From assembly GCF_001632365.1 (NCBI RefSeq), contig NW_024468515.1, forward strand, positions 665,315-729,314: a DNA stretch of 64,000 nt. The letters run 5' to 3'. Under the pieces are notes generated by a model. That model worked only from the letters and a program-made list of their open reading frames with translations. It was not told where the DNA came from and did no database searches. Every line of letters starts with the position of its first letter. Position 1 is the first letter of the stretch. The translations under genes and the position numbers were made by a program. The DNA is from Laetiporus sulphureus 93-53. Its lineage: Eukaryota; Basidiomycota; Agaricomycetes; Polyporales; Laetiporaceae. Shown one piece after another: positions 21,364 to 24,017 of this stretch.

Positions 21364-24017
21364 TCACTGCGCCTGCTCTACCTTTGGCGGTGACTCGAGC
21401 TCACGCGGCATCTCGGACGGCAGCGCCTCGTCCTGCTCTACGATGTACTTCCCTATCGGCGCAATGTCCGCCAGGCCACCCGCGAGCCCCTTGCCGCTCT
21501 CGTAAATCGACACCGTTGACAGCGTCCGCAGCAGCTTGCGCCCCTCGCCACCTATCTCGGACGATGTCCGCGAGCGCCCAGGAATGACGTAGTCCTGCGT
21601 TGGGAACGCGACCGAGCTCGACTCGGGTTGCTCGTTGGAGCTGGGCGTGTGCGTCCGCTGCTGCCAGATGTTCGTGCCAGTGTGGCCAGCGAAGAGCGAG
21701 TGCGTGCGCGAAGGGATGAACGTGCTCGCGCGCCGTGAGTACCGCACCACTGGGTCTGTGATCCGCCCTGCAGGCAAATCAGCCAGGGTGGACTCGTCTG
21801 CCGCAGACGCAGGCACCGTCTCCTCCTGCGATTGCTCCGCAAGCCGCTCATCGAAGCTGAGCGGCCGCTCCGGCACCTGCGCGCCCATGTCCGGCGACGC
21901 GAGGAACACGGAGTCGGACGGGCGCGGCATGTTCTCCGCCATCTCACGGATCTCCTCTAGTCCGCGCCGGATCTCACTCGTTGGTGAACCGCGTCCGCTG
22001 GCGGAGTGCTCGCCTTCAGTAGCAGCGACACTCCGCACCTCCCGGCGATAATCCTGGATCTCATCCCAAAGTGTCTCCTTGTACTGCTCGAGCGTCTCGA
22101 GTGCCTCCAGCGTGTGCCACCGCTTAAACGGCTCCGGGCATTCCGGCTCGTCATTGACGTCGTGATAGGATGCCAGCCAAGGGTGCTCGAGCGCCTCAAC
22201 GACGGAGAAACGAGACGCGGGATCGAAAGCCAAGATCTTGGTCAGAAGGTCGGTCGCTGGAAATCATGATAAGATGGGATATTAGTTGAGATGGACGGTC
22301 ATATACCTTGCAGGTCGGCAACCGGCAAGACTTTCGAGAATGAGACCGCCTTTCTTATCGGCAATGATCGAACGTAGGCAGCGGCCTAACTCTGCTATGA
22401 AATACGGCTCCTTTATGATGCAGCAAAGAACGTACCTTCTGGCTGGCAACCCGCCTAATCACCTCGTCATCAGGTGTACCTGATGAGAACTTAGTACAGG
22501 ATACCACGCAGACGCATTCGTGAACTCGACTTACCAAGTACATCCAGAATTTTGTTCAGCTGATCCACTGCGAGAGCATGGCATCCTCAATCAGACACTA
22601 CGTTTTGAAATCAGAGAAATCGAGCTGACCATAGCTGGATAGCACGTGTCAGACGAAGGAGGGAAGGCGACAGCAGTTGAGCTCACTCCTTTCCCTTAAA
22701 CAAGGGCTTGCCTAGCATGAGTTCCGCAAGGATGCACCCTATCGACCACACATCGACTGGCGAGGACAAAACAATGAGCTACATGACTTGCAAGCATGGC
22801 CAGACGTACTCGCGGTGTTATATTCCCTAAGGTTGAGATGAACATGAGCAGATAATGCAAGTCAGACGTATTAACTCACTTGTATGCCAGCATGATCTCC
22901 GGCGCACGATACCATCGCGTCGCGACGTACTCAGTCATCATCGTCGGGTTGTCGTCCGATTTTGAATTGAAACCTCGGCTCAGACCAAAGTCGCAGATCT
23001 TCAGTTCACAATCGGCATTCACGAGCAAGTTTCCCGGCTTGAGATCGCGGTGGACCACCGAAGCCGAGTGCACATACTTCATGCCTGCGGATAGATGAGA
23101 GATGTGGACGCATGGCAGGGACAGCTATTCACGCACCTCGCAGGATCTGGTATACAAAGTACTGCACGTGCTCGTTGCTCAATGCTTGGCCCGACTTGAT
23201 GATCTGGTGCAGATCGGCTGTCGCAATGCATTGTGAGCACGCTTCCAGGGTATAGTGTAGAAGTTAGCGCACCTTCCATAGGCTTGCGAGGCAATCGGTG
23301 AATACTGTCAACATGCGTCAATCCACACGTGTACATGTACGCACCTCCATAAAGATATAGCTGTGTCATTGTCAGCACAGCCTATCGTACCAATCGATGA
23401 ACGTACATTTCGCTGAGATCAGAAGTACAGTCAACGTCTATAAGACCGGTGATATTCTCGTGGTTGAAGTGCCGCAGTAGCGTAATCTCTCGCAGAGCCC
23501 TTTTTGCAAGCTGGAGTTTCTCCGTCGCACGGGCAACCATCTTGATCGCGACTGGCTCTCCCGATATCTGGTCCGCGGCGGAGCTGTAGAGTATGCACAT
23601 ATTCAGGAAGGGAGTAAGCCTTGCATCAAGAAAGCTACTGACATGACATAGCCGTATGCGCCGGAGCCCATCTCGCGGATGAGCTTCCAGCGTTTCTCAA
23701 CATGGAACGCCTTGCCAAAGGACGACATGAGGGTATGATAGCCTCTGCGTTCGAAGAGAGGTGAACATGTGTTGTCCTCGAGCACTGCATGACGCTCACC
23801 TCCGCCGGAGATCCTCGTCCGACTGCCGAGCACCTAGTGTTGCGCGTGTTCGCGATCGTCCCCTCTTCCCACTGGAGGAGGCCGGCGAAGGCGCCAGAGA
23901 CGAAGACTTGCCATGCTCGTTCGCTGCACCTTCGATCTGCAGTAGCTGCTTCCCGTCTGCGTTCGCATCTCGCGACCCAGAGGCTTCTGGATGTGTGTTG
24001 TCGTCGGTGGTGGTCAT
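21364..24017 (-). CDS. SLT2: Cell-wall-integrity MAP kinase Slt2/Mpk1 with several microexons
   Basis: MAPK of the Pkc1 cell-wall-integrity cascade. Proposed exons: 24017-23800, 23744-23643, 23583-23407, 23360-23345, 23282-23273, 23217-23137, 23084-22880, 22826-22810, 22756-22687, 22634-22630, 22567-22535, 22479-22436, 22385-22307, 22256-21364 (649 aa). Motifs: GSGAYGYVISA, VAIKMVARATEKLQLAKRAL, EIYIFMEPMEADLHQII, HRDLKPGNLLVNADCELKIC, the TEY activation loop (MMTEYVATRWYRAPEIML), YNTAIDVWSIGCILAEL, GKDYVDQLNKILDVLGTPDD, LAFDPASRFSVVEALEHPWL. TEY plus the spacing is typical of Slt2/ERK5 rather than Hog1 (TGY) or Fus3-type kinases lacking this tail. Four exons are 16, 10, 17 and 5 nt, and each restores a conserved block. 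A Ser/Thr-rich C-terminal tail of about 280 residues follows the kinase core. The first exon adds a 70-residue Ser/basic leader joined by RRRGYHTLMSSFGK. Confidence 0.94.

What the first reader, a model, noticed from the sequence alone, without database searches (positions are those of the whole stretch)
22630..22634. A 5-nt microexon in the Slt2-type MAP kinase, with 10-, 16- and 17-nt companions
The kinase domain is only continuous if exons of 16 nt (23360-23345), 10 nt (23282-23273), 17 nt (22826-22810) and 5 nt (22634-22630, CTATG) are included. Each is flanked by AG and a good GT donor, and each restores an invariant block: EIYIFMEPMEADLHQ, YKEYNTAIDVW and GKDYVDQLNKI. Five nucleotides is near the lower limit described for exons and challenges ordinary exon definition. 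The frame sum over 14 exons is exactly divisible by three.
Basis: partly seen in the sequence, partly recalled or inferred. Interest (0 to 1): 0.85.

Follow-up and report, generated by a model that had tools for sequence, protein, structure and literature searches.

The report
Five-nucleotide exon in a mushroom kinase
A kinase gene of a bracket fungus contains a tiny five-letter exon that looks real and is already in the public gene model; it is a fairly ordinary example of a known kind, useful mainly because small exons seem to spoil the annotation of the same gene in other mushrooms.

Summary
The 5-nt exon CTATG (22634-22630) lies between complete introns of 52 and 62 nt. Four relatives from short, transcript-like contigs each recover these small exons in an unguided spliced alignment. 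The protein is identical over 649 residues to a deposited Laetiporus sulphureus 93-53 protein, so the model is already public. Two readings need correcting. The gene is not the Slt2 orthologue: canonical Slt2 is on contig C30 of the same genome, and the window gene belongs to a sister clade. And 5 nt is no lower limit: 1-nt exons are documented. The upstream intron is shared with canonical Slt2 and the downstream one is not, so the exon most likely arose when an intron was gained 5 nt after an old one. Random placement of 12 introns in the kinase part gives an exon of 5 nt or less in 47% of trials (33% for 13 introns over the whole CDS). Annotated relatives are garbled at this site in 17 of 102 cases, canonical Slt2 in 4 of 90. 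RNA evidence in this species is missing.

The parts
22630..22634 (-). exon 10, 5-nt microexon CTATG: last base of the Asp codon, the Tyr codon, first base of the Val codon of GKDYVDQ
   Evidence: identity to P0001
22635..22686 (-). intron 9, 52 nt, GTGAGC...CTGAC...CAG; same position and phase as an intron of the canonical Slt2 on contig C30
22568..22629 (-). intron 10, 62 nt, GTCAGC...CTGAT...CAG; not shared by any of 8 other own-genome kinases compared
23345..23360 (-). exon 4, 16 nt
23273..23282 (-). exon 5, 10 nt
22810..22826 (-). exon 8, 17 nt
22687..22756 (-). exon 9, 70 nt, ends GGA before GTGAGC
22535..22567 (-). exon 11, 33 nt
23800..24017 (-). exon 1 (start codon), 218 nt
   Evidence: P0001 identity
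23643..23744 (-). exon 2, 102 nt
23407..23583 (-). exon 3, 177 nt
23137..23217 (-). exon 6, 81 nt
22880..23084 (-). exon 7, 205 nt (HRDLKPGN, TEY activation loop)
22436..22479 (-). exon 12, 44 nt
22307..22385 (-). exon 13, 79 nt
21364..22256 (-). exon 14, 893 nt, to the stop codon
   Evidence: P0001 identity

Best explanation
The 5 nt are a genuine, constitutive microexon of a MAP kinase that is sister to canonical Slt2. Shown: the exon lies between two complete, normal-sized GT-AG introns; it is the only arrangement found that keeps the frame and restores GKDYVDQ; the resulting protein equals the deposited one. Inferred: each intron is recognised on its own (intron definition) and the two are removed one after the other, so that the 5-nt exon never has to be defined as an exon. 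Inferred from paralogue comparison: intron 9 is the older one, shared with canonical Slt2, and intron 10 was gained 5 nt downstream in the window clade, leaving the microexon between them.
For: Model and frame. Protein identical to P0001, 649 of 649. Same small exons from 4 of 4 relatives. Loss of 39-45 when the exon is forbidden, with a garbled peptide in place of YVDQLNKI. Introns 9 and 10 have CTGAC and CTGAT branch-like motifs 14 and 23 nt from their ends. Skipping the exon stops at codon 313; retaining intron 9 stops at codon 300, intron 10 at codon 311. Intron positions (298, phase 2) and (326, phase 0) are shared with C30, chance of 2 or more shared 0.004; (300, phase 1) is shared with none of 8 kinases. 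Random placement of 12 introns in 1065 nt gives a smallest internal exon of 5 nt or less in 47% of 200000 trials. The 18 window-type relatives known only from lgn or jgi contigs all read FKGKDYVDQLNK. Annotated relatives are broken at this site in 17 of 102, canonical Slt2 in 4 of 90, P = 0.0095; 28 of 102 are broken at one or more of the three small-exon sites, against 7 of 102 at any of six control motifs.
Against: No RNA read of this species was seen. Donor 9 (rank 5 of 43) and acceptor 10 (rank 6 of 43) are weak. By score alone 5-9% of shuffles do as well. Random placement explains the 5-nt exon better than the whole set: four or more exons of 17 nt or less arise in 9% of trials for the kinase part, and in 2.5% over the whole CDS, where an exon of 5 nt or less arises in 33%. 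Proteins from unannotated contigs are selected for open frames, so 0 of 18 broken is partly built in, and 0 of 18 against 17 of 102 is not significant (P = 0.07). No genomic DNA of a relative could be read, so conservation of intron 10 is only indirect. Which intron is older rests on one paralogue; intron loss in C30 is the alternative. Parts of some paralogue alignments are poor (C18 between residues 155 and 193), so some of their intron positions may be wrong. Order of removal is not tested.
Confidence: 0.85

Rival explanations
1. The microexon is a regulated switch: when it is skipped or a flanking intron is kept, the frame shifts and the mRNA or a truncated kinase is removed, tuning kinase level.
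For: Skipping any one of the four small exons, or keeping intron 9 or 10, gives an early stop. Donor 9 and acceptor 10 are weaker than most. A 20-nt switch-like microexon is described in Trichoderma Xlr2 (PMC11121469, abstract and passages).
Against: None of the four lengths is a multiple of three, so there is no alternative full-length protein from skipping one. The annotation failures show only that software misses the exons, not that cells do. No isoform was seen.
Confidence: 0.07
2. The exon is a prediction artefact; the true transcript uses another junction and has a different sequence at GKDYVDQ.
For: In 22-34 of 400 shuffles a chance acceptor gives a nearly right protein; no species-specific RNA was available, and how the deposited model was made is not known here.
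Against: The real sequence has no such alternative (loss 39-45); 18 of 18 unannotated relatives have KDYVDQ; the deposited protein agrees.
Confidence: 0.03
3. The pair of introns is ancestral and canonical Slt2 lost the downstream one, so that the microexon is older than the duplication.
For: Own-genome Hog1-like (C52) and Fus3/Kss1-like (C74) genes have an intron at (299, phase 1), within the same 5 nt, so this spot has held introns more than once.
Against: None of 8 other kinases has (300, phase 1); the C52 and C74 introns are at a different nucleotide.
Confidence: 0.2

Closest known systems
Conserved, often misannotated plant microexons of 1-15 nt (PMC8831610; abstract start and passages read)
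   Same: Tiny exons inside conserved coding sequence, missed by annotation; a 5-nt rice exon confirmed by RT-PCR; consecutive removal of the flanking introns proposed
   Different: Plants, with RNA-seq support; here a fungus with 46-62 nt introns and no RNA read
1-nt exon of Fusarium CYP621A (PMC12940212; parts 1-2 of 3 read)
   Same: Fungal gene, exon needed to keep phase within a conserved motif, in an intron stretch of 139 nt, wrong in nearly all deposited transcripts
   Different: 1 nt rather than 5; a P450 gene of Fusarium; supported by 18 SRA reads; the authors suggest rescue of a lost base rather than intron gain
Microexons of Phanerochaete chrysosporium P450 genes (PMC1184071; passages read)
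   Same: White-rot basidiomycete, small introns, shortest exon 6 bp, nearly one third of the P450 genes with microexons
   Different: Different gene family; 6 nt rather than 5
1-nt exon of Arabidopsis APC11 (PMC4674806; abstract and opening read)
   Same: Constitutive ultra-short exon needed for the frame
   Different: Plant; tested with GFP fusion constructs

Membership tests
Constitutive coding microexon (15 nt or less) | Flanked on both sides by complete GT-AG introns | tested here: met
Constitutive coding microexon (15 nt or less) | Needed to keep frame and a conserved peptide | tested here: met
Constitutive coding microexon (15 nt or less) | Present in mature RNA of this species | not testable with these tools
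   no RNA reads of this species available; only the deposited protein
Constitutive coding microexon (15 nt or less) | Same exon in orthologous genes | tested here: inconclusive
   only protein-level footprints; one scan each of viral contigs and genome contigs found no relative
Slt2/Mpk1 orthologue | Groups inside the canonical Slt2 clade | tested here: not met
   separate clade, support 100; canonical clade support 100; joined with support 91
Slt2/Mpk1 orthologue | TEY-type MAP kinase with MPS1 as closest solved structure | tested here: met
   TEYVATRWYRAPEI; MPS1 best at 408 bits
Switch-like regulated microexon (Xlr2 type) | Alternative inclusion giving two isoforms | not testable with these tools
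   no RNA data; skipping gives an early stop

The most novel reading that the evidence does not exclude
The cluster of small exons in this mushroom kinase clade is kept by selection as a splicing checkpoint: each error truncates the kinase, so splicing efficiency sets its level under stress, and the 5-nt exon has been held since before Polyporales and Agaricales parted.
Probability: 0.08. Interest if true: 0.55.

Novelty: new member of a known kind. Interest (0 to 1): 0.3.

Why it matters
It gives a case in which the history of a microexon can be read from a paralogue in the same genome: one old intron plus one new intron 5 nt away. It also shows that public models of this kinase are wrong at the small exons in about a quarter of the annotated relatives among the 120 best hits (28 of 102), which would corrupt kinase inventories and structure predictions for mushrooms.

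Tried and rejected
One scan each of viral contigs and genome contigs with the single protein P0001 found no relative (15 pattern matches each, none confirmed); I did not repeat them with an alignment. The genome has no relatives in the genome search set and gives no file, so no cross-species genomic alignment was possible. The third protein search was not used.

The alignment score by itself was rejected as proof, because 5-9% of shuffles reach it.

I considered using the annotation footprint to prove intron 10 in relatives and rejected that as proof. Of the 17 broken sites, five read xVDQL after intron-like letters, with x = L, S, S, T, A (P0024, P0029, P0057, P0072, P0099), as expected if the 3' end of an intron ending just before the second base of the Val codon were read through; the window's own intron 10 reads HALAVDQL in that frame. 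P0114 lacks GKPLFKGKDY and resumes at VDQL. Four read SYVDQL (P0023, P0031, P0047, P0073), as expected of AG before CTAY; this shows the first intron's acceptor but fits either one or two introns. P0056 reads KDYGQR, like retention of intron 10 in the window (KDYGQL). P0018 reads KDYGTP, as if CTATG were joined to exon 12. The other five (P0015, P0030, P0078, P0090, P0113) fit no simple pattern.

Counts: the 102 annotated window-type hits include P0001 itself and P0119, which has both ncbi and lgn sources. A looser motif test gave 13 of 102 against 2 of 90 (P = 0.007); I report the stricter count. In one search I took P0081 and P0084 out of the R2 list (regex misses, the sequence is intact) and added P0015 and P0099 to R1 by eye. 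One search used only three of the six control motifs and gave 2 of 102; with all six it is 7 of 102, which is the number used here. One of the six spans an exon border and gave 5 of the misses. L036 (contig C31) was compared but left out, because its aligned part has no intron; so 8 of 9 fetched kinases were counted. The support values printed were shifted by re-rooting; one search gives the right ones.

Papers not held: Romfo 2000 on intron definition in fission yeast (seen only as a reference title) and the paper I recalled as describing the Laetiporus genome. Ten literature searches listed no paper on this kinase's microexons; two searches showed only 25 of 39 and 25 of 2770 papers, and one search was too broad to be of much use.

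Full report
What is there. The kinase gene runs on the minus strand from the start codon at 24017 to the stop ending at 21364. It has 14 coding exons of 218, 102, 177, 16, 10, 81, 205, 17, 70, 5, 33, 44, 79 and 893 nt, sum 1950, and 13 introns of 46-62 nt, all GT-AG. The 5-nt exon reads CTATG. It supplies the third base of Asp, all of Tyr and the first base of Val in GKDYVDQ.

Is it real? The protein from this model equals the deposited 'kinase-like protein [Laetiporus sulphureus 93-53]' at all 649 residues. This points to the organism and shows that the public model already contains the microexon; whether RNA supported that model I could not check. With the 5-nt exon forbidden the score falls by 39-45 and the peptide is garbled. 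Score alone is not proof: in shuffled introns a chance reading scored as well in 22 of 300 cases and in 22-34 of 400 under four settings. None of the 1600 shuffles restored KDYVDQLNKI, and the exact AG-YTAYG-GT arrangement with room for two introns arose in 3 of 20000. Support for the 16- and 10-nt exons is weaker by score (loss -1 to 6) and rests mostly on the deposited protein.

What gene it is. The best Pfam match is the protein kinase domain PF00069 (residues 93-380), with PF07714 and a marginal PF03109 overlapping it. The closest solved structures are MPS1 at 408 bits and MAP kinase 7 at 363. The genome has another kinase on contig C30 that scores 551 bits against MPS1; that MPS1 is the Slt2 orthologue is recalled. 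A maximum-likelihood tree was made of 60 sequences and 353 columns: 27 chosen from 120 window-type hits, 25 from 120 canonical hits, and 8 from this genome. The window type forms one clade (support 100), canonical Slt2 with C30 another (100), and the two join with support 91. Window and C30 are 54% identical. So the gene is a second, Slt2-related kinase and not the Slt2 orthologue. The named organisms among its 120 best hits that I recognise are Agaricomycetes (class recalled); only the best 120 of 6925 were shown, so its limits are unknown.

How the exon came about. Intron positions were compared with 8 other kinases of the genome by spliced alignment. Intron 9, in the Asp codon, is at the same nucleotide in C30, as is intron 12; two shared positions by chance has P = 0.004. 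Three introns are shared with the Hog1-like gene on C52 (P = 0.00008), among them the one before the 16-nt exon. Intron 10 and four other borders of small exons are shared with none of the 8. The simplest account is gain of new introns close to old ones. The Hog1-like and Fus3/Kss1-like genes have an intron at yet another nucleotide within the same 5 nt (names from motifs, recalled). One very small exon is then expected: 12 introns placed at random in 1065 nt give a smallest exon of 5 nt or less in 47% of trials, 13 over the whole CDS in 33%. Four exons of 17 nt or less are less expected, 9% and 2.5%.

How it works. Both introns are complete: donor, a CTGAY motif 14 or 23 nt from the end, and CAG. 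Neither is longer than the longest other intron of the gene, whereas the skipped version would be a 119-nt intron. I infer recognition across introns and stepwise removal, as proposed for plant microexons, where the two flanking introns are likely removed consecutively and the upstream one tends to be detained (PMC8831610, passages). Here donor 9 is weak (rank 5 of 43), which would fit intron 10 leaving first, but acceptor 10 is weak too (rank 6 of 43); the order is not tested. Errors are costly: skipping exon 10 stops at codon 313, retaining intron 9 at codon 300 and intron 10 at codon 311.

Conservation, indirectly. All 18 window-type relatives known only from lgn or jgi contigs read FKGKDYVDQLNK, but such proteins are selected for open frames. 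Among annotated ones 17 of 102 are broken at this site, against 4 of 90 canonical Slt2 proteins (P = 0.0095). 28 of 102 are broken at one or more small-exon sites (hand adjustments are told in Tried and rejected), against 7 of 102 at any of six control motifs. Several broken versions look like intron ends read through at exactly these borders, in species that I place in Polyporales and Agaricales from memory, which suggests that intron 10 is older than this species. No genomic DNA of a relative could be read.

What is known. Exons down to 6 bp in Phanerochaete P450 genes (PMC1184071, passages), a 20-nt switch exon in Trichoderma (PMC11121469, passages), a 1-nt exon in Fusarium (PMC12940212), a 1-nt exon in Arabidopsis (PMC4674806) and a verified 5-nt exon in rice (PMC8831610) bracket this case. 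It is a new member of a known kind. No paper on microexons of this kinase appeared among the rows listed by the ten searches made.

Noticed in passing
window 20258-21103 (+): An open frame of 281 aa matching PF10609 (NUBPL iron-transfer P-loop NTPase, E 8.4e-83) lies tail to tail with the kinase gene.
   Followed up: partly
L032 (C52), L033 (C74) against window 22630-22634: Hog1-like and Fus3/Kss1-like kinases of the same genome carry an intron at residue 299 phase 1, so MAP kinase paralogues have introns at three different nucleotides within 5 nt.
   Followed up: partly
P0015, P0018, P0024 and others: 28 of 102 annotated relatives of the kinase are garbled at one or more small-exon sites; public models of this gene need re-annotation in many mushrooms.
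   Followed up: partly
window 21364-22256: The C-terminal tail after the kinase domain ends in a stretch (LLRTLSTVSIYES...APIGKYIVE) conserved in the four relatives, of unknown role.
   Followed up: no
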